From NCBI GenBank assembly GCA_003165155.1, contig PLSK01000226.1, forward strand, positions 14,402-47,658: a stretch of 33,257 nt of DNA, given 5' to 3'. The notes below the pieces were generated by a model, which searched no databases, was not told where the DNA came from, and was given only the letters and a program-made list of their open reading frames with translations. The position numbers and the translations under genes were made by a program. How positions within the stretch are numbered: the first letter of the stretch is position 1; every line of letters starts with the position of its first letter. Shown here one piece after another: positions 4,989 to 31,063 of this stretch. Origin of the DNA: Mycobacterium sp. (lineage in GTDB: Bacteria > Actinomycetota > Actinomycetes > Mycobacteriales > Mycobacteriaceae).

Positions 4989-5880
4989 TGTCGGCGCGGG
5001 CGCGCTGCGCCAGATCCAGCATGGGCATCGTGAGGAACCCGTGCACCCCGCCCTGATACGACAACCGCGTCACCGACACGCCGGCCGTCTCGAGCGCGTC
5101 GGCATATGCCACACCCTCGTCGCGAAGTGGATCGTGGCCTGCGATGACCACGACCGCCGGCGGCAGCCCGTGCAGGTCGGCGCCCAGCGGTGAGGCATAC
5201 GGGTGGCTGCGCTCGGCGACCGTGGGCACGTACTGATCCCAATACCACTGCAGCGCGGGTTTCGGGTTGTAGTAGCCGCGGCCGAACGCGCGGTAGGACT
5301 CGGTGTCGAAGTCAGCGGCGATGACCGGGTAGAGCAGCAACTGCCCGGCCAGCTCCGGCCCACCGCGGTCCCGGGTCATCAGCGCGGTCACTGCAGCCAG
5401 GTTGCCCCCGGCGCTGTCGCCGCCGACCACGATGCGCCCCGCATCGATCCCCAAGGCGTCCGCATTGTCGTTGATCCATCGCACGGCCGCGTAGAGGTCG
5501 TCGGCGGCGGCGGGCCACGGGTGCTCCGGGGCCAGCCGGTAGTCGACCGAAACCATCACGGCACCAATGCGATTCGCCAGGTTTCGGCACAGGCCGTCGT
5601 GGCTGTCCAGATCGCAGAACACGAACCCGCCGCCGTGGGCGTACACCACGACCGGCAGCGCGGCGGCATCGGTCACCGGGCGGTAGATCCTGACCGCGAT
5701 GTCACCGCCCGGGCCGGGAATCGACGTGTCGCTGACGGCGCCCACCGGCTCGGGGTCGGCCGCGGGTACGAACCGGGACCGGATCGTGGCGCGGGCCTGC
5801 GCGCCGGTCATGGTGTGCACCGGCGGGAAACCGGCGTCCAACGCGCCGATCAGGCCGGCAATCTGGGGGTCCAGGCTCAC
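4942..5880 (-). CDS. HSL-family alpha/beta hydrolase (esterase/lipase)
   Basis: 312-residue cytoplasmic esterase of the hormone-sensitive-lipase family, like mycobacterial LipH/LipN/LipI. The oxyanion motif HGGG is at residues 82-85, nucleophile Ser156 in GDSAGG, acid Asp250 in HDPLRDEG, and His280 in GGVHGF. I start it at GTG 5880 (VSLDPQIAGLIGALDAGFP), not at the longer track ORF: this GTG overlaps the IclR stop as GTGA, and the extra 54 upstream residues are the IclR C-terminus read out of frame. It is thus the second gene of an iclR-esterase operon. It could hydrolyse esters or lactones made by the two BVMOs. Its N-terminal segment closely matches the partial hydrolase at the right end of the window. 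Confidence 0.9.
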   Translation of the reverse strand: MSLDPQIAGLIGALDAGFPPVHTMTGAQARATIRSRFVPAADPEPVGAVSDTSIPGPGGDIAVRIYRPVTDAAALPVVVYAHGGGFVFCDLDSHDGLCRNLANRIGAVMVSVDYRLAPEHPWPAAADDLYAAVRWINDNADALGIDAGRIVVGGDSAGGNLAAVTALMTRDRGGPELAGQLLLYPVIAADFDTESYRAFGRGYYNPKPALQWYWDQYVPTVAERSHPYASPLGADLHGLPPAVVVIAGHDPLRDEGVAYADALETAGVSVTRLSYQGGVHGFLTMPMLDLAQRARADISREVAQLVSLPPTQ

Positions 5881-6695
5881 GCGTACTGCGCGGCCGGGAG
5901 AGGCCGCAGTGGGCGCGCCTGCTGCAGCGTCGGCGCCACGCGTTGCGGGCCGTCCTCGATGTCGCGCCAAATTCCCATCGCGGTCATCCGCACCGGTGCG
6001 GCCAGCCGCTGATCGAACATCATCCTGTTCATGGGCCCGCACACCGACACCGCCGCGACCGCGTCGCCGGGCTCACCGATGGGGGCCGCGACACACCCGA
6101 AGCCGGGCAGCGATTCTTCGCGGTCGAACGCCACACCGTGGGCGCGTACCTTGGCCAGTTCCATGGCCAGCTGGGTGGGCGAGGTGATCGAGAAGCGGGT
6201 TTTGCGGGCGTTCAGGTCGACGGTCTCGGGATCCTGGCCGTAGGCCAGGATCGCCTTTCCGACGGCCGCGCAGTGCGCCGGTTGCCGGCCACCCACGCGG
6301 GTCGGGATGGCCGCGGCCATCCGATCGCCGATCTTGTCGAGGTAGACCACGTCGGTGCCGTCGAGAACGGCGAGGTGAACCACCAGTCCAGTGGCGCGGT
6401 GCAATTCGTGCAGCAGCGGGGTCGCCGCCTTGTGGAGGCGGTCCTGGTGCACGGCCAGCGAACCGAGTTCGACCAGGCGCATGCCCAGTTCGTAGTCACG
6501 GCCGATTCGGCGCAGCCAGCGCAGCTGAACCAGCCGGTCGAGCATGCGGTGTGCCGACGACCGCGGCAACCCGGTGCGTCGTACCACCTGGGCCAGCGTC
6601 AGCCGGCCGGGACCGTCGAAGGAGTCGAGCACCAGGGAGACGCGGTCGATGACGGCGCTGGGGGTGGTGGCTTCGACGGGCAACGTTGACGTCAT
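5877..6695 (-). CDS. IclR-family transcriptional regulator
   Basis: 272-residue DNA-binding regulator. The N-terminal winged helix-turn-helix (about 14-70) includes LTLAQVVRRTGLPRSSAHRMLDRL; the C-terminal IclR effector domain (about 85-255) contains HLAVLDGTDVVYLDKI, the AHCAAVGKAILAY segment and GFGCVAAPI. I start it at ATG 6695, which has a clear Shine-Dalgarno (GGAGG, 5 nt spacing); the track's 22-residue extension runs through the AT-rich promoter. It shares a GTGA overlap with the esterase. IclR proteins usually sense an aromatic or acyl catabolite and control adjacent catabolic genes, so this is the best candidate for regulating the island. It probably also controls itself through the repeats in its own promoter. 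Confidence 0.92.
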   Translation of the reverse strand: MTSTLPVEATTPSAVIDRVSLVLDSFDGPGRLTLAQVVRRTGLPRSSAHRMLDRLVQLRWLRRIGRDYELGMRLVELGSLAVHQDRLHKAATPLLHELHRATGLVVHLAVLDGTDVVYLDKIGDRMAAAIPTRVGGRQPAHCAAVGKAILAYGQDPETVDLNARKTRFSITSPTQLAMELAKVRAHGVAFDREESLPGFGCVAAPIGEPGDAVAAVSVCGPMNRMMFDQRLAAPVRMTAMGIWRDIEDGPQRVAPTLQQARPLRPLPAAQYA

Positions 6696-6790
6696 GGGAT
6701 CCTCCGCAACTGTGTGACACAGGCTATATATACCTAGTTGTAATATACCTTTTTGTACCATATCGGAGTGGCCGGTGTCGCATAGCTCCG
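6696..6790 (-). promoter_or_regulatory. AT-rich iclR promoter with tandem repeats (putative operator)
   Basis: A sharply AT-rich patch (about 6722-6763) in otherwise GC-rich DNA, directly upstream of iclR. On the plus strand ATATACCT occurs at 6728-6735 and 6743-6750, a 15-bp period (AGGTATAT on the coding strand), with a looser copy GTACCA at 6755-6760. The TATATA/TATATT runs can supply -10 elements for leftward transcription. The GGAGG ribosome site is just upstream of ATG 6695. Operator assignment is inference. Confidence 0.6.
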
Positions 6791-6847: not shown

Positions 6848-8314
6848 TCAGCCCTTGGCGGCGCGCCCGCCGGCGCGACGGCCATAGAAGCTGCCGTCAC
6901 CGAGTGAGACGCCGCTGGCGTATCCCCAGGCGGCCAGGCCGGCAGTGGAGCGGCCCGCGGCATAAAGACCGGGGATGGGCTGCCCGCTGACGTGCAGGAC
7001 TTCGCCGTCCAGCGTGGTCTGCAGACCACCGAGGGTGAACCCCCCGGTGCTCTCGCGCAGATCGATGGCCCCGACCGGAGAGCCGACGGGCTTGAGCCAT
7101 TGCCGCTTCTTGTGCAGCAACGGGTCCTCGCCGCGCCCGGCCGCCTCGTTGTAAGCGGCGACGGTGGCTTGCAGGCAGCCCGGCGCCAGACCCATCTCCT
7201 GTTCGAGGTCGGCCACCGAGTCACACACCCAGGTGGGCGGGCGCATCATCAGCTGCGGCGACGGTGCTGCCATGGCTTCCTCTTGGGAGTCGCCGTCGAT
7301 GATCAGGTACGCCGTGTTGTCCTGGTGATACAGCGTCAGCTGCCCGATCCGTCCCGGGTAGGTGTCTTCGGCGACGAAGCGTTGGCCGCGGCCGTTGACC
7401 AGGATCCCGCGCACCAGCTGCTGGGGATCGACGAATATCGCCACCTCGGTGGCGTCCATGTGGGCGAGATCGGCGCCGAGGGCTTGGGCCATCCTGATGG
7501 CCTGCCCGTCGTGCTGTTCGATCGAGGCCGCCGGACGTCCGGCGATCCGCGGCGCGTACTGCGCCACCATGGCGTCGTTGTAGGCGAAGCTGCCGGTCGC
7601 GAGCACCACACCGCGTCGCGCCCGGATGTTGATATCAGTGCCGTAGCGCCGTGCCTGTATTCCGGCGACGCGGCCGTCGGACTCGACGATGAGGCGCTGC
7701 ACCCGGACGTCGTAGAGCGCCCGCGCACCGGCCGCGGTGGCGGTTTCCACTAACGGCTTCATCAACATATAGCCGGCGCTGGCCTCGCCTTGCTTCTTGT
7801 TCGACATCTGCGGCACGTGGCCGCGCGGAGCAGGGGTGGCGATGGTGTTGAACGGATACGAGTTTTCGCCGCCGCTGTACATCAGGCCCTGATCGCCCAT
7901 CGGCTCCCAACCGGGCTCACCGAAGAACTCCGCCTTGAACGGGACGTCGCAGCCCGAGAGCCACTCGAAATGCTCGACGCTGCCGGCGCAGTAGTCGGCG
8001 ATCCGGTTCTCGTCGGCGCCCGGGCCCATCGCCGCGTTGAGGAACGCCGCCATGTTGTCCACCGAATCGTCGAAGCCGCAGGCCTTTTGCAGCGCCGTTC
8101 CGCCGCCGAGGTAGATGAAACCGCCCGCCATGGCCGCCGCACCACCCCAGGCGCCGGTGCGCTCGAGGACCAGCACATCGGCACCGGCCCTGGCGGCTTC
8201 AACAGCCGCGGCGGCGCCGGCGACGCCGTAGCCTGCGATCACAACGTCGGCTTCCTGGTCCCAGGCGCCGATCGCCGCGGCGGGCACGGGTGTGACGTCA
8301 TGCTGGGGGGTCAT
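6848..8314 (-). CDS. KstD-like FAD-dependent dehydrogenase
   Basis: 488-residue flavoprotein of the fumarate reductase/succinate dehydrogenase/3-ketosteroid Delta1-dehydrogenase superfamily. The FAD Rossmann motif GYGVAG is at residues 28-33 followed by VLVLERTGAWGG; the C-terminal FAD segment is GLYAAGRSTAGLAAWGYASGVSLGDGSFYG. I choose ATG 8314, which overlaps the upstream dioxygenase stop as ATGA, over the longer track start at 8347; the length then fits the Rv1817-type group. Lying with HsaA- and HsaC-like genes, a role introducing a ring double bond (Delta1-type) before ring opening is plausible. The group is broad and close KstD identity cannot be claimed without alignment. Last gene before the terminator. 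Confidence 0.82.
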   Translation of the reverse strand: MTPQHDVTPVPAAAIGAWDQEADVVIAGYGVAGAAAAVEAARAGADVLVLERTGAWGGAAAMAGGFIYLGGGTALQKACGFDDSVDNMAAFLNAAMGPGADENRIADYCAGSVEHFEWLSGCDVPFKAEFFGEPGWEPMGDQGLMYSGGENSYPFNTIATPAPRGHVPQMSNKKQGEASAGYMLMKPLVETATAAGARALYDVRVQRLIVESDGRVAGIQARRYGTDINIRARRGVVLATGSFAYNDAMVAQYAPRIAGRPAASIEQHDGQAIRMAQALGADLAHMDATEVAIFVDPQQLVRGILVNGRGQRFVAEDTYPGRIGQLTLYHQDNTAYLIIDGDSQEEAMAAPSPQLMMRPPTWVCDSVADLEQEMGLAPGCLQATVAAYNEAAGRGEDPLLHKKRQWLKPVGSPVGAIDLRESTGGFTLGGLQTTLDGEVLHVSGQPIPGLYAAGRSTAGLAAWGYASGVSLGDGSFYGRRAGGRAAKG

Positions 8315-9219
8315 GGCCGCATCGCCGCCGGCAGGTCGCTCACCCATGCGTGGCCCCAGTAGCTGTCAGCAGTGATTTCCTCTGCGGTGTAATGGTTTTC
8401 GTCGACGCGCAGACCATCGGTGCCGAACTCAATATCCCAATCGCCGGGTGCGCGCACATAGAACGACACCATCTTGTCGTTGGTGTGGCGACCCAGAGTC
8501 GACGACAGCTGGAATCCGGCTTTGTTCACTCGGTCCAACGCCTGCCCCACGGTATCGAGGCAATCGACCTCCACCATGAGATGGATCAGGCCTGGATCGC
8601 GCACAGTCATCGCAGGACAAATAGCCAAGCTGTGGTGACGCTCATTGGTTCCCAGGAAACGCACCCGCACAGGTCCGAACTCCGGTGGCGTCGGCACCCG
8701 GAACGCGCCCCGGGAGACGAAACCAAGTACCTCGGTGTAGAACTCGAACAGCCCGTCGACATCCAGAGCTGGTAGGACGACGTGGCCCAGCCCCTGATTT
8801 CCTGTGACGAACTTCGCGCCGAACGTCGTCACCACAGGACTGTGATCGAGGACCGCGCCGTGGAAAACCTCCAGCGGGGAGCCCGCCGGGTCATCGAACG
8901 CGATGCCCTCCTCGATGCGCCGCGCGTCGACGTCGTCCTGCGTGAGCTGTTTGAACGGCACGCCCGCAACATTTAAGGCGGCCTTCACACGCTCGAGCGC
9001 GGCGCGGTCGCGGACCTCCCAACCGATGGTGACAATCCGGTCGCTGTCGGCGGGCACCACGATGATGCGCCCCGCCCGCTCGTCCATCCGCAGGTATAAG
9101 GCCGACTCGTCGGGACCGTTGCCTTCGGCGAATCCCAGCACGCCGAAGGCGAAGTGGCGCCACCGCTCGATGTCGGCCGTTTGCACCTTGACGTAACCCA
9201 GGCTCTTGATGAGTCCCAC
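8311..9219 (-). CDS. HsaC-like type I extradiol ring-cleavage dioxygenase
   Basis: 302-residue two-domain vicinal-oxygen-chelate dioxygenase that would open a catechol next to the diol (meta cleavage) using Fe(II). The metal triad is visible as His146 (GLGHVVL), His213 (LIHLMVEV) and Glu264 (DIEFGTDG), matching the BphC/HsaC spacing; the conserved HHSLA at 195-199 and TLGRHTNDKMVSFY are present. The track start (TTG 9252) is too early: GTG 9219 has a strong ribosome site (AGGAAGGA, 7 nt spacing) and gives the usual ~300-residue length. It lies 29 bp after the HsaA-like gene and overlaps the KstD-like gene by 4 nt. Overall it reads like HsaC of cholesterol catabolism, but as a divergent homologue. 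The preferred catechol is unknown. Confidence 0.9.
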   Translation of the reverse strand: MGLIKSLGYVKVQTADIERWRHFAFGVLGFAEGNGPDESALYLRMDERAGRIIVVPADSDRIVTIGWEVRDRAALERVKAALNVAGVPFKQLTQDDVDARRIEEGIAFDDPAGSPLEVFHGAVLDHSPVVTTFGAKFVTGNQGLGHVVLPALDVDGLFEFYTEVLGFVSRGAFRVPTPPEFGPVRVRFLGTNERHHSLAICPAMTVRDPGLIHLMVEVDCLDTVGQALDRVNKAGFQLSSTLGRHTNDKMVSFYVRAPGDWDIEFGTDGLRVDENHYTAEEITADSYWGHAWVSDLPAAMRP

Positions 9220-9248
9220 TGGTTTGTCCTTCCTGTCGGCTGGGGACG

Positions 9249-10430
9249 TCAAATCATCGCCCGCAGCGGACCCTGCGGGTCGACGCCCAGTGAGCTGAGT
9301 GCCGAGGCATGGTAGACGGTTCCGGGAACGTGGATGGCATGCGCCAAACCAGTGTGCGCGTCACGCCAATACCGCTGCAACGGCTTGTCCATCCGCATCG
9401 CGTTTCCGCCGGATCGGCCGAAGATCTCGTCGACGGCCGACACGGCCCGCCACACCGCGCGCACCTGGGTGCGCCGACCGGCGGCGCGGTCCTCGAAGGA
9501 CACCTCCTTGCCGGCATCGACCATGTCGTAAATCTTGTCGGCGTTGGCCAGCAGTTCCTGGCGGGCGGCGTTGATGTCGGCGGCGGCCTCACCGATTGCA
9601 TACATGACGTACGGGTCGTCTTTGATCGCGACGCCGCTGGAATTGACACGCTCGCGCTGATAGTCCAGGTGTGCGGCCAGTGCGCCTTCGGCGATGCCGA
9701 TCACCGCCGACGAGATACCCAGCGGGAACATCGTCGACCATGGCATCAGGTACAGCGTCTCGGTCATCCCGGCCTTGCGCTGGGCCGTGCCGTCCATCAC
9801 TTCCAGCGCGTCCATAGTGCGGTAGGACGGCACGAAGGCGTCCTTGACGATGACGTCCTTGGACCCGGTTCCGCGCAGTCCCACCACATTCCACGAGTCC
9901 GGCACGATCTCGTAGTCCTTGCGGGGCAGGATCATGTGCAGCATCTGTGGCGGCATCAGCGGCTTGCCGTCGGCGTCGCCGATCATCGCACCCAGGATGA
10001 TCCAGTCGCACGCGTCGGTGCCCGAGCTGAACTGCCAGCGGCCATTGAAGACGTACCCGCCATCGACTGGTTTGGCAACGCCTTGCGGCGCGTATGGCGA
10101 GGCGACCCAAGTGTCGATGTCCTGGGCCCACACCTCGTCGGCGACGCGGGGGTCGGCGTAGGCCAACTGGTAGGGATGCACGCCGACGACGCCGTTGATC
10201 CAGCCCGCCGCCGGGTCCAGCGCGGCGGTCGCCATGACCGTCTCGGCGAATTCCCGCGGGTGCACCTGCAATCCGCCGTAGGCCTTGGGTTGCAGCAGCC
10301 GGATGGAGCCGATCGCCTTCATGCTTTTGACGGTCGCGTCGGGCAGCTGACCCAGCTGTTCTGCCTCCCAGGCCTGTTCGCGCAGTTGGTCGGCAATGTC
10401 GGTGACCCTGTCGAGTACCCGCTCGCTCAT
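9249..10430 (-). CDS. HsaA-like flavin-dependent monooxygenase, oxygenase component
   Basis: 393-residue acyl-CoA-dehydrogenase-fold oxygenase of two-component group D monooxygenases (HsaA, HpaB-like, PheA families). These use FMNH2 or FADH2 from a separate reductase to ortho-hydroxylate a phenol. HsaA-type features are the LPDATVKSMKAIGSIRLLQPKAYGGLQ opening, AAGWINGVVGVHPYQLA, the SSGTDACDWIILG segment, VVGLRGTGSKDVIVKDAFVP, and the C-terminal RYWRDAHTGLAHA. ATG 10430 is preceded by an AGGA site. It would supply the catechol cleaved by the HsaC-like enzyme 29 bp downstream. No HsaB-type reductase gene is in the window, so reductant must come from elsewhere. Substrate specificity is inference. 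Confidence 0.9.
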   Translation of the reverse strand: MSERVLDRVTDIADQLREQAWEAEQLGQLPDATVKSMKAIGSIRLLQPKAYGGLQVHPREFAETVMATAALDPAAGWINGVVGVHPYQLAYADPRVADEVWAQDIDTWVASPYAPQGVAKPVDGGYVFNGRWQFSSGTDACDWIILGAMIGDADGKPLMPPQMLHMILPRKDYEIVPDSWNVVGLRGTGSKDVIVKDAFVPSYRTMDALEVMDGTAQRKAGMTETLYLMPWSTMFPLGISSAVIGIAEGALAAHLDYQRERVNSSGVAIKDDPYVMYAIGEAAADINAARQELLANADKIYDMVDAGKEVSFEDRAAGRRTQVRAVWRAVSAVDEIFGRSGGNAMRMDKPLQRYWRDAHTGLAHAIHVPGTVYHASALSSLGVDPQGPLRAMI

Positions 10431-10534: not shown

Positions 10535-10837
10535 TCAGTACTCGATGTGCACGTCATCACTCACCGGTCGCGCCTGGCATCCCAGGATGAGGCCATCGGC
10601 AAGGTCGTCGGGTTCGAGAATGTCACACTGGGCCATCTCCACCCGCCCGGAAATGACCGTGGCCACGCACGAGCCGCAATGGCCTTCGCGGCAGGAATGG
10701 GGCACGTTGATGCCCGCGTCCAGCATGGTGTCCACCAGAGTCCTGTCCCGGGGCCACGACAGGCGGTGGTGGGCGCCGTCCAAGTCGACCGTGGCTGAGG
10801 CATCGGTGATGGAGTCGATACGTACGACTTCTGACAT
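10535..10837 (-). CDS. Stand-alone KshB-type [2Fe-2S] ferredoxin
   Basis: 100-residue plant-type ferredoxin. The cluster ligands are Cys49, Cys54 and Cys57 (CREGHCGSC) and Cys87 (LGCQARP). As I remember KshB/Rv3571, this sequence (SWPRDRTLVDTMLDAGINVPHSCREGHCG... LILGCQARPVSDDVHIEY) resembles the C-terminal ferredoxin domain of that 3-ketosteroid 9alpha-hydroxylase reductase, but without the FAD and NAD domains. I start at ATG 10837; the track's 8 extra residues run into the divergent promoter. It is upstream of and co-oriented with the HsaA-like gene (104-bp gap). It could feed electrons to a Rieske oxygenase or a P450 such as the one at 18869. Partner unknown. Confidence 0.85.
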   Translation of the reverse strand: MSEVVRIDSITDASATVDLDGAHHRLSWPRDRTLVDTMLDAGINVPHSCREGHCGSCVATVISGRVEMAQCDILEPDDLADGLILGCQARPVSDDVHIEY

Positions 10838-10968
10838 GCCACGATTGTCGCCGGGGCACATTGGCGGTTCATCACCGTTGCCCGGTGGTCGGGACGCTTC
10901 ACATGCAAGCGTCCAGTCACCGGGAAACGGCGCGGGCCGGGGTTACGCGCCGACTTAGCGTGACCATT
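10838..10968. promoter_or_regulatory. Divergent promoter region, ferredoxin/BVMO
   Basis: 131 bp separating the minus-strand ferredoxin from the plus-strand BVMO, judged non-coding because both track extensions into it are low-complexity and lack homology. A TAGCGT hexamer (TANNNT type) at 10956-10961 ends 7 nt before GTG 10969, the geometry of a mycobacterial leaderless promoter. No obvious symmetric operator was seen. Confidence 0.4.
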
Positions 10969-14484: not shown

Positions 14485-14970
14485 GCGGGCGAGGACGCTT
14501 TGGTGACCTATCGGGTGACTAGTGGCGTAGCCATGGTCACTATGAACCGGCCGCAATACCGCAATGCGCAGAACTAGGCCATGACCTACGGCTTGGATGC
14601 CGCGTTCGGCCGCGCTGTCGATAACGAGAATGTTCGTGTCATCGTGCTAGGCGGCAACGGTGAACATTTCAGCGCCGGCCACGATATTGGCACGCCGGAA
14701 CGCGACCATCATGTGCATTACGACAACCGTGCGGTGTGGTGGGATCACGTCGGAAAATCCGCAGGAGATCAGCGCTTCGCCCGGGAGGCGGAAGTCTATT
14801 TGGGAATGTGTCGGCGCTGGCGGGAGATTCCAAAGCCGATCGTCGCGATGATTCAGGGCGCCTGTATTGCCGGCGGTTTGATGCTCGATGAAAGATACTG
14901 CATGACAATCGCTTTCGGAGATATCACAAAGCTCACGGGACTGGGCTCTGTCCAGCTGAGTTTCAAGTAG
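14485..14970 (+). pseudogene. Enoyl-CoA hydratase (EchA) remnant: amber stop and truncated C-terminus
   Basis: Reading one frame through from about 14485 gives ALVTYRVTSGVAMVTMNRPQYRNAQN, then TAG at 14575-14577, then AMTYGLDAAFGRAVDNENVRVIVLGGNGEHFSAGHDIGTPE and PKPIVAMIQGACIAGGLML, a clear crotonase N-terminal half with the oxyanion segments AGHDIG and GACIAGG. A single C-to-A change (TCG Ser to TAG) would explain the stop. After GLML (about 14883) the frame continues 27 residues (DERYCMTIAFGDITKL...) that are not hydratase-like, and the remaining ~130 residues are missing, so a deletion or recombination joined this gene to the leader of hsaG. The track ORF at 14581 is only the downstream fragment. 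No functional hydratase is expected. Confidence 0.85.
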
Positions 14971-14986: not shown

Positions 14987-15964
14987 ATGTCCACCGCTTC
15001 GCCTGGCAAGGCGTCCGTAGCCATCGTCGGGTCGGGCAACATCAGCACCGACCTGCTGTACAAGCTCTTGCAATCGGAGTGGTTGGAGCCACGCTGGATG
15101 GTCGGCATCGACCCGAAGAGCGAGGGCCTGGCCCGCGCGCGCAAGCTCGGTTTGGAGACAAGCCATAAGGGTGTCGACTGGCTGCTGGCCCATTCGGAGA
15201 AACCCGATCTGGTCTTCGAGGCCACTAGCGCCTACGTGCATCGCGATGCCGCGCCGCGCTACGCCGAGGCCGGCATCCGAGCGATTGACCTGACCCCGGC
15301 CGCCGTGGGTCCCGCAGTGATCCCGCCGGCCAACCTGCGCGAGCACCTCGACGCCCCCAACGTCAATATGATCACCTGCGGTGGCCAGGCAACGATCCCG
15401 ATCGTCTACGCGGTGAGTCGCGCGTTGGTCGAAAAAGGGGGAGTGCCCTACGCAGAGATCGTCGCGTCGGTTGCCAGCGCATCGGCAGGCCCGGGAACCC
15501 GGGCCAACATCGACGAGTTCACCAAGACCACCAGCAAGGGCGTGGAGACCATCGGCGGCGCCAAGCGCGGCAAGGCGATCATCATCCTCAACCCAGCGGA
15601 CCCGCCGATGATCATGCGCGACACCATCTTCTGCGCCATTCCCGAGGACGCCGACCGCGAAGCTATCGCCCAGTCCATCAGGGACATGGTGGCGGAGGTT
15701 CAGACGTATGTGCCCGGCTACCGACTGCTCAACGAGCCGCAGTTCGACGACCCGTCCATGCACTCGGGAGGGCAGGCGGTGGTCACCACGTTCGTCGAGG
15801 TCGAGGGCGCAGGCGACTACCTTCCGCCGTACGCAGGCAACCTGGACATCATGACCGCGGCGGCTACCAAGGTCGGCGAAGAGATCGCGAAGGAATCCCT
15901 GGCTGCGGGCGATGAGCGCTTGCGCGAAGAGCAGACGACCACAGCCGGAGGAGCGCAAGCATGA
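14987..15964 (+). CDS. hsaG: Acetaldehyde dehydrogenase (acetylating), HsaG/MhpF/DmpF family
   Basis: 325-residue cytosolic enzyme converting acetaldehyde (or propanal) with CoA and NAD+ to acetyl-CoA (propanoyl-CoA), fed by channelling from its partner aldolase. The NAD-binding motif [14 protein letters not shown] opens the protein; the catalytic thiolate is Cys131 in [30 protein letters not shown] and the [15 protein letters not shown] partner-interface region are intact. The sequence resembles Rv3535c (HsaG). It carries a few extra residues around [14 protein letters not shown]. It overlaps the aldolase by ATGA. The expected third partner HsaE (hydroxypentadienoate hydratase) is not upstream; the hydratase remnant is. 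The leader has only a weak AGAGAAG ribosome site. Confidence 0.95.
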
Positions 15965-17019
15965 GCATCGACGAGATCTTCTTCAACGACGTGTGGGACG
16001 TGCGGATGACCGACACGTCACTGCGGGACGGGTCGCACCATAAGCGTCACCAGTTCACCAAGGACGAGGTCAGTTCCATCGTGGCCGCGCTGGACGCTGC
16101 GGGTGTCCCGGTCATCGAGGTGACCCACGGCGACGGCCTGGGCGGGTCCAGCTTCAACTACGGGTTCTCCAAGACGCCCGAACAGGAGCTCATCAAGCTG
16201 GCGGCTGAGACGGCGAAAGGGTCCAAGATCGCCTTCCTGATGCTGCCCGGCGTGGGCACCAAGGAGGACATCAAAGAGGCGCAGAACAACGGTGGTTCGA
16301 TCTGCCGCATCGCCACGCACTGCACCGAGGCCGACGTATCGATCCAGCACTTCGGGCTCGCTCGTGAACTCGGTCTGGAGACTGTCGGCTTCCTGATGAT
16401 GAGCCACACCATCCCGCCCGAGAAGCTCGCGCAGCAGGCCAGGATCATGGCCGACGCCGGCTGCCAGTGCGTCTACGTCGTGGACTCTGCTGGTGCGCTG
16501 GTGCTCGAAGGCGTGGCCGACCGTGTCTCCGCGCTGGTCGCCGAACTCGGTGACGACGCGCAGGTGGGTTTCCACGGCCACGAGAACCTGGGTCTAGGCG
16601 TCGCCAACAGTGTCGAGGCTGTCCGCGCTGGTGCCAAGCAGATCGACGGCAGCACCCGCCGGTTCGGTGCCGGTGCCGGCAATGCACCCGTCGAAGCCAT
16701 GATCGGGGTGTTCGACAAGATCGGCGTCAAGACGGGTATCGATTTCTTCGAGATCGCCGACGCAGCCGAGGACGTCGTGCGGCCCGCCATGCCCGCCGAA
16801 TGCCTGCTCGACCGCAACGCATTGGTCATGGGCTACTCGGGGGTGTACTCCAGCTTCCTCAAGCACGCCATCCGCCAATCGGAGCGCTACGGCGTCCCGG
16901 CGCACCACCTTCTGCACCGTGCGGGCCAGCGCAAGCTGATCGGCGGCCAAGAGGATCAACTGATCGATATCGCACTCGAGATCAAGCGGGAACAAGATGC
17001 CGCACCGTCGGTCCTCTGA
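15961..17019 (+). CDS. hsaF: 4-hydroxy-2-oxovalerate (or -oxohexanoate) aldolase
   Basis: 352-residue DmpG/MhpE/HsaF-type class II aldolase cleaving 4-hydroxy-2-oxoacids to pyruvate plus acetaldehyde or propanal. The N-terminal TIM barrel has the signature [16 protein letters not shown] with Arg22, metal ligand Asp23 and His26; the other metal ligands are His205 and His207 in FHGHENLG. The C-terminal DmpG communication domain ([29 protein letters not shown], then [18 protein letters not shown]) is complete, so the aldehyde channel to HsaG should form. The ATG overlaps the hsaG stop by 4 nt, fitting equimolar production. It closely resembles Rv3534c. The window shows the bottom of a meta-cleavage pathway but not the hydratase step. 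Confidence 0.95.
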
Positions 17020-17123: not shown

Positions 17124-17990
17124 TTATTTACGGGTCAAGAAACCCAGCACGGTGCTTTCGAATGCCTCTTTGGCCTCGATCATCGCCCAATGCCCGGACT
17201 TGGGGAATATGTGCAGCTCCGCGTTGGGAATGGTGCGCATCGGGATGAGCGCCATGTCGGGCGGGCTCACCCGGTCGTCTCGGCCCCACGTCAGCAGGGT
17301 GGGTGCCGCCACCTTGTGCATCATTGCCCAAGGCATCGGCCTGTCGGCGGCTTCCATCGCGGCCGTCATCGCGGCGAAGGCGGCCTTTCCGTACATGCGG
17401 CGCGCGGCGGCCAGCGTCTCCGCGTCGGTGGCCAGCTGCCAGCGTTCCTCGATGAGTTCGTCGGTGACCAGGGACTGGTCGTACACCATCGACTTGAGCC
17501 AGTCGACGAGCCGTTGCCGAGTGGGGTCCTCGGTGAACTCCTGCAGCAATCGGATGCCCTCGCTGGGGCTTGGGCTGAAGATGTTGGTGCCGATCCCGCC
17601 GATGGTCACCAGCCGGTCGATGCGGCCGGGATTCTGGATGGCGAAGTTGATGCCCACGCCGCCGCCCATCGAGTTGCCGACGATGTGCACCCTGTCCACG
17701 CCGAGTGCGTCCAGGAACGGTGCCACCGCGCCTTGGGCAGTGACCATCGGATGGCCGCCGAAGTCGGGGCTGACGCCGAAGCCGGGGAATTCCAGGATCA
17801 GGCAGCGGAAATGTTCGGCGAACGTGGGCAGGACCCCCCGAAAGTTGCGCCAGCCAGTAACCCCGGGGCCCGAACCGTGCAGGAACAGCAGCACCGGACC
17901 GGAATCAGCGCCGCAGTCGTAATAGCGCAGGACGCCTTGAGGAGTGGCGACGTCGCGGAGATCATTGGTGTTGGTCACGGATGTCACCAT
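17124..17990 (-). CDS. HsaD/BphD-like meta-cleavage-product hydrolase
   Basis: 288-residue alpha/beta hydrolase of the C-C bond hydrolase group that splits the dienoate made by an extradiol dioxygenase. The family motif HGSGPG is at 38-43, nucleophile Ser107 in GNSMGGG, acid Asp238/239 in WGRDDRVSP, and His267 in SGHWAM; the motif spacing fits BphD/HsaD. ATG 17990 is used; GTG 17978 four codons in is an alternative. It is convergent with hsaF (104-bp gap without a clear terminator) and lies downstream of the SnoaL-like gene, probably in one transcript. With the HsaA-, HsaC-, HsaG- and HsaF-like proteins it completes all but the hydratase and reductase steps. Family call firm; substrate inferred. 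Confidence 0.88.
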   Translation of the reverse strand: MVTSVTNTNDLRDVATPQGVLRYYDCGADSGPVLLFLHGSGPGVTGWRNFRGVLPTFAEHFRCLILEFPGFGVSPDFGGHPMVTAQGAVAPFLDALGVDRVHIVGNSMGGGVGINFAIQNPGRIDRLVTIGGIGTNIFSPSPSEGIRLLQEFTEDPTRQRLVDWLKSMVYDQSLVTDELIEERWQLATDAETLAAARRMYGKAAFAAMTAAMEAADRPMPWAMMHKVAAPTLLTWGRDDRVSPPDMALIPMRTIPNAELHIFPKSGHWAMIEAKEAFESTVLGFLTRK

Positions 17991-18772: not shown

Positions 18773-18868
18773 CCAGGGCCAGTGCCTGTATCGATTCGGC
18801 AGGCTGACCTTCGGTGCCGCCGCGCCAGGTATCGTTTCGCGTACACCACAAGGCGGGCGGGGGTGGCC

Positions 18869-20230
18869 ATGGCTAGCAGACCAGGGATTGGGATGGCCCT
18901 GCTGCACGTGGCCTCGACCCTGTCGGCGATCGCGTCGACAACGGCTCGTGCGGCCTGGGCTGGTATCGACCCTGAGGGATTCTTCCGGCGTCATTCAACC
19001 GACACCGAACCGTTTTTGCTGAAATTCCCAGGACTCGGTGACGTGCTGTTCGTCTCGACAGTCGATGGTGCGCGCGACATACTGACCGCTCCCACGACGC
19101 TATGCCGTGCGCCGCTGCCCAATCCGATCGAACCCGTCGTCGGGCCGAATTCGCTGATCCTGCTTTCCGGTGAGACTCATCGGCGCACCCGTAGCATTCT
19201 GATGCCCGCGTTTCGCGGCGAGCGGGTGCGCAGCTACGTCGACTTGATAGCCGACGCCACCAATGATGAAATCACGGCATTGCAACCGGGCGATCAGTTG
19301 ATGGTTTGCGACGCGGCCCAAGCCATCACGCTGGACGTGGTGATTCGAGTGGTTTTCGGCGTGACGGACGGTGCTCGTCGCGCCGAGTGTGCCCGGTTGA
19401 TTGAGGAATTGATGCGTTCCGGCACCGCGCCGCTGATGCTGGTGCCGTGGCTGCGACGGGAGATAGCCGGGCGAGGGCCATGGGCCCAATTGGTCGCTTT
19501 CCGCACGCAGCTCGATCGTCTGTTATCCGAGCAGATCGAAGAGCGCAGGGGGATGGGGGATCACGGCAGCGACGTGATGGAGTTGATCCTCACGGCGACC
19601 GACGAAGACGGCGACGCCCTCGGTGACGACGCTTTGCGTGACCAGTTGCGGACGATGCTCGCCGCGGGGCACGAAACCAGCTCGACGTCGTTGGCGTGGG
19701 CGCTGTATTACATCCACCGCGACGAGAGCATCCGCTCACGGGTTATCGAGGAGCTAGCGGATGCAAGCACACCGGGGGAGATTGCCACTCTGCCTTACCT
19801 CGGTGCGGTGATACACGAGACTCTGCGCATGCACCCGACGGTGCCGATCGTGTTGCGCAGGCTTACCGGGCCACTCACGGTCGCCGGCGTTCCGCGTGCG
19901 GCCGGTGATGTGATCGGAATCGCTTTGCCCGCATTGCATTTCAACCCCGACGTGTGGAGAAATCCAGAATCCTTCGATCCTAACCGATTCTTGGAGCGCA
20001 AGCCTTCACCGTTTGAGTACGCTCCATTCGGCGGTGGGTACCGTCGTTGCATCGGCGCAACATTCGCACAACACGAGCTGGCCGTGGCGATCGGCACCAT
20101 CTTGAATACCGTTGAGCTGCGCATGCCGCGCAGTGAGCAGCTCAGCAAACCGCCGCGCGCCGTACCGCGGGGAATTGCCACCAAGCCAAACCGTGAGATT
20201 CTGTTGGACGTGATCGCCCGACGGCAATAG
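18869..20230 (+). CDS. Cytochrome P450 (CYP135/137/138-like)
   Basis: 453-residue heme monooxygenase. The I-helix oxygen-activation motif AGHET is at 266-270, the K-helix ExxR at Glu317-Arg320 (HETLRMHP), the PERF-type region NPESFDPNRF follows, and the heme loop FGGGYRRCIG carries the thiolate ligand Cys394. The ATVAQ-like L-helix start (ATFAQHELAVAIG) and overall style resemble mycobacterial CYP135/137/138 rather than CYP125/142. ATG 18869 lies in a G-rich leader; the track start (GTG 18782) adds a 29-residue Arg-rich stretch overlapping no known P450 part, so I reject it. It is 37 bp upstream of a methyltransferase and heads the cassette with the MMPL transporter. Probably hydroxylates the molecule that is then methylated; substrate unknown. 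Confidence 0.88.
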   Translation: MASRPGIGMALLHVASTLSAIASTTARAAWAGIDPEGFFRRHSTDTEPFLLKFPGLGDVLFVSTVDGARDILTAPTTLCRAPLPNPIEPVVGPNSLILLSGETHRRTRSILMPAFRGERVRSYVDLIADATNDEITALQPGDQLMVCDAAQAITLDVVIRVVFGVTDGARRAECARLIEELMRSGTAPLMLVPWLRREIAGRGPWAQLVAFRTQLDRLLSEQIEERRGMGDHGSDVMELILTATDEDGDALGDDALRDQLRTMLAAGHETSSTSLAWALYYIHRDESIRSRVIEELADASTPGEIATLPYLGAVIHETLRMHPTVPIVLRRLTGPLTVAGVPRAAGDVIGIALPALHFNPDVWRNPESFDPNRFLERKPSPFEYAPFGGGYRRCIGATFAQHELAVAIGTILNTVELRMPRSEQLSKPPRAVPRGIATKPNREILLDVIARRQ

Positions 20231-20267
20231 ACGACCCGCCGTGCTGCCCGACGATCGGAGAATTCAG

Positions 20268-21041
20268 ATGGACCTCGAAACCATGCCACGCGGCGGATTC
20301 GACGCCACGTGGTTGGATCGACGGCTACAGACCGACCGCCCGGAGTACCTGGACCGCGACGACGTCAACGACCGCGTCAAGCGACAGGTGATTCGCTCGC
20401 TCGACTTGATGGGCCGAGTGTTACGAGATCACCAGCACATCGCCGAGCGCGCACTGGAGCTCGTTGCCGATATTCCCGAGCCGAAGATCCTGGAATTGGG
20501 TGCGGGCCACGGTGGGCTGTCGCGCAAGCTCCTGGAAATGCGCCCCACCGCCCGGGCGACGGTTACGGATATCGACCCAATCTCGGTGTCGAAGATCGCC
20601 TCGGGTGAGTTGGGCAGGCACCCGCGCGTCCTCGTGCGCCAGATGGACGCCACCGACATCGACGCGCCCGATCTCTCCTACGACCTGGTGCTGTTCGTGC
20701 TGTCGCTTCATCACCTGCCGCCGGTCCCGGCCGCGCGGGTACTCGCCGAAGGAACCCGCGTGGCGGACAAACTGCTCATCGTCGACCTGCGCCGGCCGCC
20801 CGCTGTGCTGCACCTGATCCGCCTGGCCTCTTTTTTCCCGTTCGCGCTCGTCCTGCCCTTCGCTCATGACGGGCTGATCAGCTCGTTACGTGCCTACAGC
20901 CCCTCGGGGTTCCGGGCGCTGGCCGCTCACGCGGATCCGGCCATCACGGTCGAGTTCAGTCGACTGGGACGCAACCAGATAGTCGTCGCGCACCGGCGGA
21001 CTGCCAACGAGCAGCCGACACCCGCGTCTGAGCACTCTTAG
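20268..21041 (+). CDS. Class I SAM-dependent methyltransferase
   Basis: 257-residue protein with a Rossmann-type methyltransferase core: motif I ILELGAGHGGLSRKLL, the acidic end of strand 2 in ATVTDIDPISVSKI, motif II/III region VRQMDATDIDAPDLSYDLVLFVLSLHHLPP, and KLLIVDLRRPP. A hydrophobic segment after it (LIRLASFFPFALVLPF) could touch the membrane or a lipid substrate. I start at ATG 20268, preceded by GGAG at 7 nt spacing; the track's GTG 20241 adds nine residues without support. The TAG stop lies within the AGGAGG ribosome site of the transporter gene. It is between a P450 and an MMPL gene, so it may methylate the P450 product or a precursor of the exported compound. Confidence 0.85.
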   Translation: MDLETMPRGGFDATWLDRRLQTDRPEYLDRDDVNDRVKRQVIRSLDLMGRVLRDHQHIAERALELVADIPEPKILELGAGHGGLSRKLLEMRPTARATVTDIDPISVSKIASGELGRHPRVLVRQMDATDIDAPDLSYDLVLFVLSLHHLPPVPAARVLAEGTRVADKLLIVDLRRPPAVLHLIRLASFFPFALVLPFAHDGLISSLRAYSPSGFRALAAHADPAITVEFSRLGRNQIVVAHRRTANEQPTPASEHS

Positions 21042-21045
21042 GAGG
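21040..21045 (+). promoter_or_regulatory. Ribosome binding site that points to a CTG start
   Basis: AGGAGG, a near-ideal Shine-Dalgarno, overlaps the methyltransferase stop. It lies 5 nt before CTG 21051 and 32 nt before the first ATG (21078), too far for that ATG. The codons from the CTG read LLAGIARLAMGAPRR, a typical MMPL N-terminus. Confidence 0.7.
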
Positions 21046-21050
21046 TTGCC

Positions 21051-23306
21051 CTGTTAGCAGGTATCGCGCGGCTCGCGATGGGTGCGCCGCGGCGCATCAT
21101 CGCAGTCGGCTTGCTTGTCCTCGTCGGCACAGCGGTTTTCGGCGTCCCGGTGGCCGGCAGGCTCTCAGCCGGCGGACTCACCGACCCGGGTGCGCAATCG
21201 TCACGGGCGACCGCGCTGCTGGCGAGTACCTTCGCTCAGGGCGACATGCCGATGCTGATCACTGTTAGCTCCACGGAAGGGATCAACGGAAGCGAAACCC
21301 GGACGGTGGGCACGCAGATCGTGCATGCGCTTGCGCAGTCGCCGGCCGTGGCAGCGGTGACGTCGCCCTGGACCGCTCCGCCGGCCGCGGCGGCACCGCT
21401 GATCAGCAAGGATGGCAGAACCGGCGTGATCATCGCCGGTATCACGGGCGGCGACAACGGAGCGTCCAAGAACGCCGAGGTGCTGATCAACGAGCTGGTT
21501 CACGATCGTGGCGGGGTTACCGTGCGGGCCGGTGGCGAGGCGGCGATGAAACTTCAGATCACCCTGCAGAGCGAAAAAGACTTGAAGGTCATGGAATTCG
21601 TTGCGGTCCCGCTGAGCTTTTTGGTGTTGGTCTGGGTGTTTGGCGGCCTGGTGGCGGCTGCGCTTCCGCTGGCGGTCGGCGCCATCGCGATCTTTGGGTC
21701 GATGGCGGTGTTGCGCGTGATCAGCTTCGCCACCGATGTCTCGATCTTCGCACTCAACCTCGCCGCCGCGATGGGGTTGGCTCTGGCGATCGACTACACG
21801 CTGCTGCTGCTGAGCCGGTTCCGCGACGAGCGTGCCGCCGGCGCGGACCGGGATGAAGCGCTGGTGCGCACGATGGCCGCCGCCGGCAGGACGGTGTTGT
21901 TCTCTGCCATCACGGTCGCGCTGTCGATGTCCGCGATGGTTCTGTTCCCGATCTATGCGCTGAAGTCGTTCGCCTATGCCGGCGTGGCGGTTGTCGCGTT
22001 CGCGTCCCTCGCCGCGATTATTGTGACCCCGGCGGCCATCGTGCTGCTCGGGGACCGCCTGGACTCGTTGGACCTGCACCGGTTGATGCGCAGGTGGCGG
22101 CGGCGCCCGATGCCGGCGTCGCGCCCGGTTGAGCAGACTCTCTGGTACCGGCTGGCCATGTTCGTGATGCGCAGGGCCGTACCGATCGGGGTCGCGATAG
22201 TTGCGTTGCTAGTTGCGCTCGGCGTTCCGTTCGCCAGCGTTGAATGGGGTGTGCCCGACGACCGCGTCTTACCGAGGTCGAGCTCGCCGCACGTGGTCGG
22301 CGACCAGATGCGCACACAGTTCGCCAATGACCTGGCGACGAACCTGACGGTAGTGATACCCGATGTCGGCGGTGTCAGCTCCGCACAGCTCGACAGCTAC
22401 GCCGCTGCTCTGTCCCGGGTGCCCTACGTGTCGTTGGTCTCCGCACCCGGCGGCACGTTCGTCGCGGGTGCGCTGGTGGGGCCACCGTCGGCGGCGACGG
22501 CGATCACCAACGGCCGCGCATTTTTCACCGTCACAAGTAGCGCTCCCCCGTATTCCCAAGCATCCGAAACGCAACTCGACGGCCTGCAAGCGGCTCCCGG
22601 TCCGGGGGGACGGCGGGTGCTGATCGCTGGGACCGCACAGGTGAACCGCGACACGGCCAACGCGATCAGGTCTCAGTTGCCGCTGGTGGTGGGCGTCATT
22701 GCCGCGATCACGTTCGTGTTGCTGTTCCTGCTGACTGGCAGCGTGGTGGTGCCGCTGAAGGCGTTGTTGCTCAACGTCTTATCGTTGACTGCGGCGTTCG
22801 GCGCGCTAGCCTGGATTTTCCAGGAAGGTCACCTCGGGGCATTGGGCACGACAGCCACCGGAACTCTGGCGATCAGCATCCCGGTGCTGTTGTTCTGCAT
22901 CGCCTTCGGCCTGTCGATGGACTATGAGGTGTTCCTGGTGTCACGGATCCGCGAATACTGGCTGGCGAGCAGCCAGACACCGGCCGATAACGACAAAAGC
23001 GTCGCGCTTGGACTGGCCGGCACCGCACGCGTAATCACGGCTGCCGCACTGATCATGTCCATCTCCTTTGCGGCGCTCGGTGCGGCGCAGGTGTCGTTTT
23101 TGCGGATGTTGGGCGTTGGACTGACGGTGGCGGTCCTGGCTGACGCCACCCTCGTGCGCATCCTCCTCGTCCCGGCATTCATGCATATGATGGGCCGATT
23201 CAACTGGTGGGCACCAAAATCACTCGAGCGTTTGCATGAACATTTCGGAATCCGCGAGGCCGGCTATGCGGCAAGTGGATCTGGTGTGGAACGAGGTGGC
23301 CGATGA
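21051..23306 (+). CDS. MMPL-family RND transporter
   Basis: Integral membrane proton-driven exporter of about 751 residues (742 from ATG 21078). It has the duplicated MMPL layout: TM1 (IIAVGLLVLVGTAVFGV), an extracytoplasmic porter domain (about 40-165), five TMs, a second TM1-like helix after the Arg-rich linker (RRWRRRPMP), a second porter domain and five more TMs. The proton-relay Asp-Tyr pairs are present in both halves: LAIDYTLLLLSRFRDE and GLSMDYEVFLVSRIRE. There is no long cytoplasmic C-terminal domain, unlike MmpL3 or MmpL11. I favour CTG 21051 as start, from the ribosome site and the family-like LLAGIARLAM. Its stop overlaps the O-methyltransferase ATG (ATGA). It probably exports a lipid or small molecule made by the adjacent P450 and methyltransferases. 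Confidence 0.9.
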   Translation: MLAGIARLAMGAPRRIIAVGLLVLVGTAVFGVPVAGRLSAGGLTDPGAQSSRATALLASTFAQGDMPMLITVSSTEGINGSETRTVGTQIVHALAQSPAVAAVTSPWTAPPAAAAPLISKDGRTGVIIAGITGGDNGASKNAEVLINELVHDRGGVTVRAGGEAAMKLQITLQSEKDLKVMEFVAVPLSFLVLVWVFGGLVAAALPLAVGAIAIFGSMAVLRVISFATDVSIFALNLAAAMGLALAIDYTLLLLSRFRDERAAGADRDEALVRTMAAAGRTVLFSAITVALSMSAMVLFPIYALKSFAYAGVAVVAFASLAAIIVTPAAIVLLGDRLDSLDLHRLMRRWRRRPMPASRPVEQTLWYRLAMFVMRRAVPIGVAIVALLVALGVPFASVEWGVPDDRVLPRSSSPHVVGDQMRTQFANDLATNLTVVIPDVGGVSSAQLDSYAAALSRVPYVSLVSAPGGTFVAGALVGPPSAATAITNGRAFFTVTSSAPPYSQASETQLDGLQAAPGPGGRRVLIAGTAQVNRDTANAIRSQLPLVVGVIAAITFVLLFLLTGSVVVPLKALLLNVLSLTAAFGALAWIFQEGHLGALGTTATGTLAISIPVLLFCIAFGLSMDYEVFLVSRIREYWLASSQTPADNDKSVALGLAGTARVITAAALIMSISFAALGAAQVSFLRMLGVGLTVAVLADATLVRILLVPAFMHMMGRFNWWAPKSLERLHEHFGIREAGYAASGSGVERGGR

Positions 23307-24427
23307 CACGAAACTCTCAGCCCGGCAGAGTGTTTCGGTCAAGCTTCGTGCCGCCCGCCGTATTGGTCCGCGCCGTCGAATGGACGCGGCACCGCCTTCT
23401 TCGGCTCCATCAACGGCTATTACCCGCGCCAGCGGCGATGATGGAGATGATCGTCGGCGGCTGGCCGGCGCAAGTGATTACGACGGCAGCCCAACTCGGT
23501 GTTGCCGATGCGCTGGCGGACGGCCCACTGTCGATCGATGAACTGGCGGCTCGGGTGGGTGCGGACGCGGATGCGCTGCGACGGTTGCTGCGGGCGCTGA
23601 TCGGACGAGGCGTCTTCCGTCATCGTCGCGACGGCCGCTATGAGCTGAATTCCCTTGCCGACACGCTGCGTTCCGATGCGCCGATCTCGATGGCCGGGAC
23701 GGCACTGTTCACCGGGTCGAAAGAGCAGCGCGAACGGTGGAGCCTGCTGGTTGATTCGGTCCGAACCGGGAAATCGATTGTCCCGGCGATGCACGGCAAG
23801 GAGGGCTTCGAGTACCTCGCCGAAGAACCGGAGCATGCCGAACTTTTCAATCGGTTCATGACGAGCCTCACGCAGATGACGGTGGCGACCGTGGTGGCCG
23901 GTTATAACTTCGGTGCCCACCAGACCATCGTCGATGTTGGAGGCGGGCAGGGCACGCAACTGGCCGCCATTCTGGCTGCGGCGCCCCAATCGCGGGGTGT
24001 CCTCTACGATCTGGCGCGGGTCGTCGAGACCGCCCCGAGCGTGTTGCGTGAGTACGGTGTCGCCGATCGGGTGCTGATCGCGAAAGGGTCGTTCTTCGAA
24101 AGTGTTCCGACCGGTGGAGACGCCTACATCCTCAAGAACATCGTCCACGACTGGACCGACGATAAGGCGCTACAGATTCTGCGTAATGTTCGCGCTGTAG
24201 CGGGGCCCCGGACCACAGTGCTGCTGATCGAAATGGTCGTTCGCGAAAACGACCGTGACGGCCCGGGAAATTGGGCGGATCTGGAGATGCTGCTGAATCT
24301 GGGGTCCCGGGAGCGCACCGCGGACGAGTATCGGGAGTTGCTCAGCCAAGCCGGATTCCGGATGACGCGGGTCGTCCAGACAGCCTCGCCGCTCAGTGTG
24401 GTCGAGGCCATCTTGGAAGAGACTTAG
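23303..24427 (+). CDS. COMT/TcmO-type O-methyltransferase
   Basis: 374-residue SAM-dependent O-methyltransferase of the caffeate/hydroxyneurosporene/tetracenomycin type. The N-terminal winged-helix dimerisation domain runs about 45-115 (MIVGGWPAQVITTAAQLGVADALADGPLSIDELAARVGADADALRRLLRAL). The catalytic domain has motif I VDVGGGQG at 210-217 and the catalytic His282 in LKNIVHDWTDD; the C-terminal dimer contact LNLGSRERTADEYRELLSQAGF is intact. Members methylate phenolic or enolic hydroxyls of aromatic polyketides, quinones or phenazines. The ATG overlaps the MMPL stop by 4 nt, so it is the last gene of the P450-methyltransferase-MMPL-OMT cassette. It is convergent with the SDR beyond a 38-bp gap. 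Acceptor unknown. Confidence 0.9.
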   Translation: MTRNSQPGRVFRSSFVPPAVLVRAVEWTRHRLLRLHQRLLPAPAAMMEMIVGGWPAQVITTAAQLGVADALADGPLSIDELAARVGADADALRRLLRALIGRGVFRHRRDGRYELNSLADTLRSDAPISMAGTALFTGSKEQRERWSLLVDSVRTGKSIVPAMHGKEGFEYLAEEPEHAELFNRFMTSLTQMTVATVVAGYNFGAHQTIVDVGGGQGTQLAAILAAAPQSRGVLYDLARVVETAPSVLREYGVADRVLIAKGSFFESVPTGGDAYILKNIVHDWTDDKALQILRNVRAVAGPRTTVLLIEMVVRENDRDGPGNWADLEMLLNLGSRERTADEYRELLSQAGFRMTRVVQTASPLSVVEAILEET

Positions 24428-29413: not shown

Positions 29414-29431
29414 CGGGAACCCCGGGAACTC

Positions 29432-31056: not shown

Positions 31057-31063
31057 GAGTGCC

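What the first reader, a model, noticed from the sequence alone, without database searches (positions are those of the whole stretch)
10535..10837. KshB ferredoxin domain living as a separate gene beside an HsaA-like monooxygenase
The 100-residue ferredoxin resembles the C-terminal 2Fe-2S domain of the 3-ketosteroid 9alpha-hydroxylase reductase (SCREGHCG ... ILGCQARP) without its FAD/NAD part. A split electron-transfer chain beside a Delta1-dehydrogenase-like gene suggests an undescribed Rieske or P450 electron donor.
Basis: partly seen in the sequence, partly recalled or inferred. Interest (0 to 1): 0.55.

Follow-up and report, generated by a model that had tools for sequence, protein, structure and literature searches.

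The report
Steroid-hydroxylase reductase cut to its ferredoxin
This small mycobacterial gene is what remains of a steroid-hydroxylase reductase after its flavin half was lost, and the same loss has happened several times in related species, so the enzyme probably now draws its electrons through a free-standing ferredoxin fed by some other reductase.

Summary
Window 10535-10837(-) is an intact plant-type [2Fe-2S] ferredoxin gene whose nearest non-orthologous relatives are the C-terminal domains of KshB-type FNR-ferredoxin fusions. It lies in a mycobacterial cluster matching the C-19+ steroid cluster of M. smegmatis. At the same place other mycobacteria carry full-length KshB2 (FNR plus ferredoxin). 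Of 73 same-genus loci, 29 are fused and 44, the window's among them, keep only the ferredoxin. The short form is under the same purifying selection (dN/dS about 0.2). The neighbour-gene tree needs about six FNR losses or gains, at least three forced by well supported branches. The KshA2 Rieske oxygenase is present in 72 of 73 of these genomes. The lost FNR is not elsewhere in nine complete short-form genomes; only KshB1 remains. In freshwater-lake mycobacteria kshB1 itself has shrunk to the ferredoxin, with KshA1 kept and no KshB-type FNR found. Best explanation: a split, three-component 3-ketosteroid 9-alpha-hydroxylase, ferredoxin to KshA2, reduced by another reductase. Electron transfer itself is untested. 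A XylT-like role in reactivating HsaC2 is not excluded.

The parts
10535..10837 (-). Standalone plant-type [2Fe-2S] ferredoxin, 100 aa (an ATG at 10861 would give 108 aa); the ferredoxin domain of KshB2 without its FNR half
   Evidence: Fer2 E 2.8e-16; CX4CX2CX29C; AF2 pLDDT 89; synteny with full-length KshB2
9249..10430 (-). HsaA-like (HsaA2) flavin-dependent monooxygenase, next gene of the operon
   Evidence: NF045629 HsaA 382 bits, cut-off 450; beside the ferredoxin in most related loci
8311..9252 (-). HsaC/BphC-like (HsaC2) extradiol dioxygenase, overlaps HsaA2 by 4 bp
   Evidence: TIGR03213 364 bits, NF045631 HsaC 354 bits, both below cut-off
6848..8347 (-). FAD enzyme of the PRK07121 subfamily, related to KstD and flavocytochrome c
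   Evidence: NF005512 965 bits, above cut-off
5877..6761 (-). IclR-family regulator of the cluster
   Evidence: PF01614 and PF09339
10972..12594 (+). Baeyer-Villiger-type FMO (BVMO2), divergent from the ferredoxin; adjacent in the related loci whatever the state of the FNR (ORF listed from 10861, likely start near 10970)
   Evidence: NF045818 282 bits; adjacency
10910..10926 (-). Conserved 17-bp box TTCCCGGTGACYGGACG in the divergent ferredoxin/BVMO2 promoter, a candidate operator
   Evidence: at least 13/17 matches in 72 of 73 loci against 53 of 730 random windows
14987..17019 (+). HsaG-like acetaldehyde dehydrogenase and HsaF-like 4-hydroxy-2-oxovalerate aldolase of the same cluster
   Evidence: TIGR03215 and TIGR03217 above cut-off
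17124..17990 (-). HsaD-like meta-cleavage product hydrolase
   Evidence: NF045632 HsaD 273 bits, cut-off 400

Best explanation
The gene is KshB2, the reductase of the second (C-19+) steroid cluster of mycobacteria, cut down to its C-terminal ferredoxin domain. It most likely carries electrons to the Rieske centre of the cluster's 9-alpha-hydroxylase oxygenase KshA2. NAD(P)H is oxidised by another flavoprotein, for which KshB1 of the cholesterol cluster is the first candidate; that enzyme reduces the [2Fe-2S] ferredoxin, and the ferredoxin reduces KshA2. A two-component enzyme has thus become a three-component one. Shown: the domain loss, its recurrence, the purifying selection, the retention of KshA2, and the absence of a relocated KshB2 FNR in nine complete genomes. 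Inferred: the electron flow and its partners.
For: Same place, same neighbours, fused in 29 and ferredoxin-only in 44 of 73 loci. Domain tree: the short forms group with KshB2 and KshB-like fusions, apart from KshB1. At least 3, most simply 6, changes of state on the neighbour-gene tree. dN/dS median 0.21 for the short form, 0.19 for the fused domain. KshA2 in 72/73 genomes, mostly on the same contig within 4-46 kb; the window genome's copy best matches solved KshA (3-ketosteroid 9alpha-hydroxylase oxygenase), 4qdf, E 1e-180. The only KshB-type FNR in nine complete short-form genomes is KshB1. Independent repeat: in lake mycobacteria kshB1 itself, between hsaA and an acyl-CoA dehydrogenase gene, is ferredoxin only; no KshB-type FNR was found (best hit 33% identity) and KshA1 is intact in 9 of 11 genomes. 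In Nocardia terrae a fused KshB-like gene stands between KshA and HsaC genes on one strand. Literature: kshA2 (MSMEG_2870) and kshB2 (MSMEG_2893, 351 aa) sit in one cluster (PMC5270728; PMC5962712).
Against: No biochemical data. The ferredoxin is co-transcribed in appearance with HsaA2/HsaC2, not with KshA2. KshB1 could serve KshA2 alone, leaving the ferredoxin free for another job. Physical linkage to KshA2 is not shown in the window genome because KshA2 lies on short contigs. In M. smegmatis KshB2 did not replace KshB1 on sterols (PMC5270728), so cross-talk between the two systems may be limited.
Confidence: 0.66

Rival explanations
1. XylT-like role: the ferredoxin re-reduces the active-site iron of the oxygen-sensitive extradiol dioxygenase HsaC2, whose gene lies two places downstream, as XylT does for XylE (from general knowledge).
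For: In most loci the ferredoxin precedes HsaA2 and HsaC2. In pWW0 the XylT gene directly precedes the catechol 2,3-dioxygenase gene. In lake mycobacteria the shortened kshB1 lies beside hsaA-hsaD-hsaC.
Against: No alignment with XylT even at E 100, against 4e-12 for the BenC ferredoxin domain. In the loci of 12 genomes HsaA2 or HsaC2 was not found directly beside the gene; in four of them read in full it lies on the other side of BVMO2, in another operon (L132-L135). G517 keeps KshB2 in the cluster while its HsaC2 is 0.85 Mb away. The parent protein is an oxygenase reductase.
Confidence: 0.15
2. Electron donor to the HsaA2 flavin monooxygenase or to the PRK07121 FAD enzyme, replacing a flavin reductase.
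For: Adjacent genes. No HsaB-type flavin reductase was found on the window's contig.
Against: Flavin reductases of the HsaB type (PF01613) exist elsewhere in all 13 genomes tested, in G224 close to kshB1. HsaA enzymes use free reduced flavin (general knowledge). The FNR half, the part that could reduce flavin, is the part that was lost. Some loci lack the PRK07121 gene in the cluster (L042, L048).
Confidence: 0.05
3. Redox partner of a cytochrome P450, such as the one at 18782-20230.
For: Same window; many P450s use small ferredoxins (general knowledge).
Against: The P450 is not part of the conserved cluster. The ferredoxin derives from a Rieske-oxygenase reductase.
Confidence: 0.04
4. Functionless remnant of kshB2 on its way out.
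For: It is a truncated form of a longer enzyme.
Against: Intact start, stop and cluster ligands in the short forms; dN/dS about 0.2, as in the fused form; retained across deep splits in the genus.
Confidence: 0.03

Closest known systems
KshB2 (MSMEG_2893) of the C-19+ steroid cluster, M. smegmatis
   Same: Same cluster type and, in the fused relatives, same place; the ferredoxin domain is about 70% identical to fused homologues
   Different: KshB2 is a 351-aa FNR-ferredoxin fusion; here only the ferredoxin half is encoded
KshB1 (MSMEG_6039; Mtb Rv3571)
   Same: Homologous ferredoxin domain, 52-59% identity; also next to an hsaA gene
   Different: Fused FNR, cholesterol cluster, separate branch in the domain tree; in lake mycobacteria it too is reduced to the ferredoxin
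Three-component (class II/III) Rieske oxygenase systems
   Same: Separate ferredoxin between reductase and terminal oxygenase
   Different: KSH has been described as two-component; [quoted passage not shown]
XylT/NahT-type ferredoxins of meta-cleavage operons
   Same: Small plant-type ferredoxin near an extradiol dioxygenase gene
   Different: No detectable sequence alignment; different origin

Membership tests
Plant-type [2Fe-2S] ferredoxin (Fer2) | CX4CX2CX29C ligands and beta-grasp fold | tested here: met
KshB (3-ketosteroid 9-alpha-hydroxylase reductase) | C-terminal ferredoxin domain of the KshB branch | tested here: met
   55-64% identity to KshB-type fusions, groups with KshB2
KshB (3-ketosteroid 9-alpha-hydroxylase reductase) | FAD- and NAD-binding FNR domain | tested here: not met
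   no FNR in the ORF or nearby; none relocated in nine complete short-form genomes
KshB (3-ketosteroid 9-alpha-hydroxylase reductase) | Supports KshA activity | not testable with these tools
   KshA2 is encoded in the same genome; activity unmeasured
C-19+ steroid cluster | kshA2, kshB2, hsaA2, hsaC2, hsaD2 together | tested here: inconclusive
   hsaA2, hsaC2, hsaD2 homologues in the window, kshB2 as ferredoxin only, kshA2 on other contigs; no direct comparison with the M. smegmatis sequence
XylT-type ferredoxin | Sequence similarity to XylT and dioxygenase reactivation | tested here: not met
   no alignment at E 100; reactivation not testable here
Three-component Rieske oxygenase | Separate ferredoxin plus separate reductase for one oxygenase | tested here: inconclusive
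   ferredoxin and oxygenase genes present, reductase partner unidentified

The most novel reading that the evidence does not exclude
Steroid 9-alpha-hydroxylase has changed from a two-component to a three-component enzyme several times in mycobacteria, once in its only form (the lake clade), by dropping the reductase half and borrowing an unrelated flavoprotein.
Probability: 0.55. Interest if true: 0.65.

Novelty: new variant of a known kind. Interest (0 to 1): 0.5.

Why it matters
KSH is a key enzyme of steroid breakdown in mycobacteria and of industrial steroid production, and it is taught as a KshA plus KshB pair. A form that has repeatedly shed the flavin half of KshB would mean that the ferredoxin carries the partner specificity while the reductase is interchangeable, gives natural 'minimal' donors for engineering KshA, and poses a sharp question: what reduces KshA in the lake mycobacteria, where no KshB-type FNR was found?

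Tried and rejected
Searching for a relocated or remnant KshB2 FNR in the short-form loci and in nine complete genomes found none. XylT membership was tested and rejected. A P450 partner was rejected for lack of conserved linkage. A shared operator between the ferredoxin and KshA2 promoters was looked for: KshA2 promoters carry their own conserved box (GTCCTGATGAGCGGAAC) that matches the ferredoxin box at only 11 of 17 positions in most relatives and 13 of 17 in the window genome, too weak to claim. PADLOC gave no match. The transcriptome paper read for M. smegmatis did not show induction of the ring-degradation genes by androstenedione.

Full report
Observation. The ORF 10535-10837(-) is real. 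It encodes a plant-type [2Fe-2S] ferredoxin (Fer2 E 2.8e-16; CX4CX2CX29C), predicted to fold completely on its own (pLDDT 89; best PDB matches are plant-type ferredoxins, TM 0.81-0.85). No FNR sequence precedes it; a divergent Baeyer-Villiger monooxygenase gene starts about 110-130 bp away. Downstream on the same strand come HsaA-like, HsaC/BphC-like, a KstD-like FAD gene of subfamily PRK07121 and an IclR regulator.

What it is. The window lies in a 5.26 Mb draft genome, G000. Searches in 301 genomes of the family and 327 of the genus gave standalone orthologues at about 58-82% identity, and then C-terminal domains of about 360-aa FNR-ferredoxin fusions. I read 73 same-genus loci with this gene neighbourhood. 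In 29 the gene at this place is a complete FNR-ferredoxin fusion, in 44 (the window included) only the ferredoxin remains, without FNR remnants nearby. The short forms keep a start codon and the four cysteines. The nearest named relative is M. komossense DSM 44078, 90% identical and also standalone.

The cluster matches the C-19+ steroid cluster described in M. smegmatis, where kshA2 is MSMEG_2870 and kshB2 is MSMEG_2893, 351 aa (PMC5270728; PMC5962712; gene list kstD2, kstD3, kshA2, kshB2, hsaA2, hsaC2, hsaD2 in PMC6351609). I did not compare it with the M. smegmatis sequence itself. The fused form here is therefore most likely KshB2 and the window gene is KshB2 without its FNR half.

How often the FNR was lost. 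On a tree of the neighbouring proteins (HsaA, HsaC, BVMO2) the two states need six changes, at least three of them forced by well supported branches. Fusion is the likely ancestral state, because KshB1 and the KshB-like genes of Rhodococcoides, Williamsia, Rhodococcus and Nocardia are fused. The tree alone cannot tell gain from loss. The domain tree puts the short forms with KshB2 and KshB-like fusions, away from KshB1, though 90 columns resolve little. Selection on the short form (median dN/dS 0.21) is about that on the fused domain (0.19).

The oxygenase partner. The Rieske oxygenase KshA2 is present in 72 of the 73 genomes, mostly on the same contig 4-46 kb away. G000 has two copies, C57:1451-2551 and C184:1-1020; the first matches solved KshA enzymes, best 4qdf at E 1e-180. 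They are on other contigs, so linkage is shown in relatives only. In Nocardia terrae a fused KshB-like gene stands between a KshA gene and an HsaC gene on one strand.

The reductase. In nine complete short-form genomes the only KshB-type FNR is that of KshB1, 58-63% identical; no copy of the KshB2 FNR exists elsewhere. KshB1 is thus the first candidate to reduce the free ferredoxin. An independent case strengthens the reading: in a clade of small mycobacterial genomes, several of them lake metagenome assemblies by title, the kshB1 gene itself, between hsaA and an acyl-CoA dehydrogenase gene, is reduced to the ferredoxin. No KshB-type FNR was found in the 11 genomes searched (best hit 33%), while KshA1 is intact in nine. 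Several of these assemblies are incomplete, but the most complete (G486, 100%) shows the same. KshA there must be reduced through the free ferredoxin and another flavoprotein, by some other donor, or not at all.

Rivals. A XylT-like role for HsaC2 is the main one. The operon order favours it, as in pWW0. Against it: no sequence relation to XylT, the position of the ferredoxin on the other side of BVMO2, away from HsaA2/HsaC2, in the four loci of that type read in full, and G517, where HsaC2 is 0.85 Mb from KshB2. It is not excluded. A flavin-monooxygenase or P450 role has little support.

Regulation. A 17-bp box, consensus TTCCCGGTGACCGGACG, lies in the divergent promoter in 72 of 73 loci against 7% of random windows. 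It is a candidate operator; no regulator is assigned. Its likeness to the box in KshA2 promoters is too weak to claim co-regulation.

Known and new. KshB, KshA2 and the C-19+ cluster are known. [quoted passage not shown] I found no report of a free-standing KshB ferredoxin in the open-access library searched; most subscription papers, probably including the original C-19+ paper, are not held. It fails membership in KshB (no FNR domain) but probably works like the ferredoxin half of it. I rate it a new variant of a known kind.

Noticed in passing
window 14491-14970: The enoyl-CoA hydratase gene stops matching after residue 138 and runs into what looks like the last dozen codons of the neighbouring hydratase (HsaE-like) gene; compared with L132 a deletion has removed most of both, so the cluster lacks its HsaE-like hydratase here.
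   Followed up: partly
L144 (G000:C184:1-4300): A second copy of the cluster core in the same genome: KshA2, HsaC, HsaA and BVMO2 adjacent, with no ferredoxin between HsaA and BVMO2.
   Followed up: partly
L154-L160, L220, L226, L235, L238, L240, L243: Small mycobacterial genomes, several from lake metagenomes, with kshB1 reduced to its ferredoxin and no KshB-type FNR found; two records are titled Bifidobacterium breve, probably mislabelled.
   Followed up: partly
window 28223-33114: Two acyl-CoA dehydrogenases, two MaoC-like proteins, a thiolase-like lipid-transfer protein and a DUF35-like protein in a row, resembling the igr side-chain operon of cholesterol degradation (the likeness to igr is from general knowledge).
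   Followed up: no
window 18782-24427: P450, methyltransferase, MmpL-like transporter and O-methyltransferase genes interrupt the cluster and are absent from the homologous loci read; possibly a lineage-specific insertion.
   Followed up: no
G279:C13:183792-184223 and G099:C16:39231-39659: Flavin reductase (PF01613) genes about 3 kb from KshA2, not seen there in most of the other clusters.
   Followed up: no
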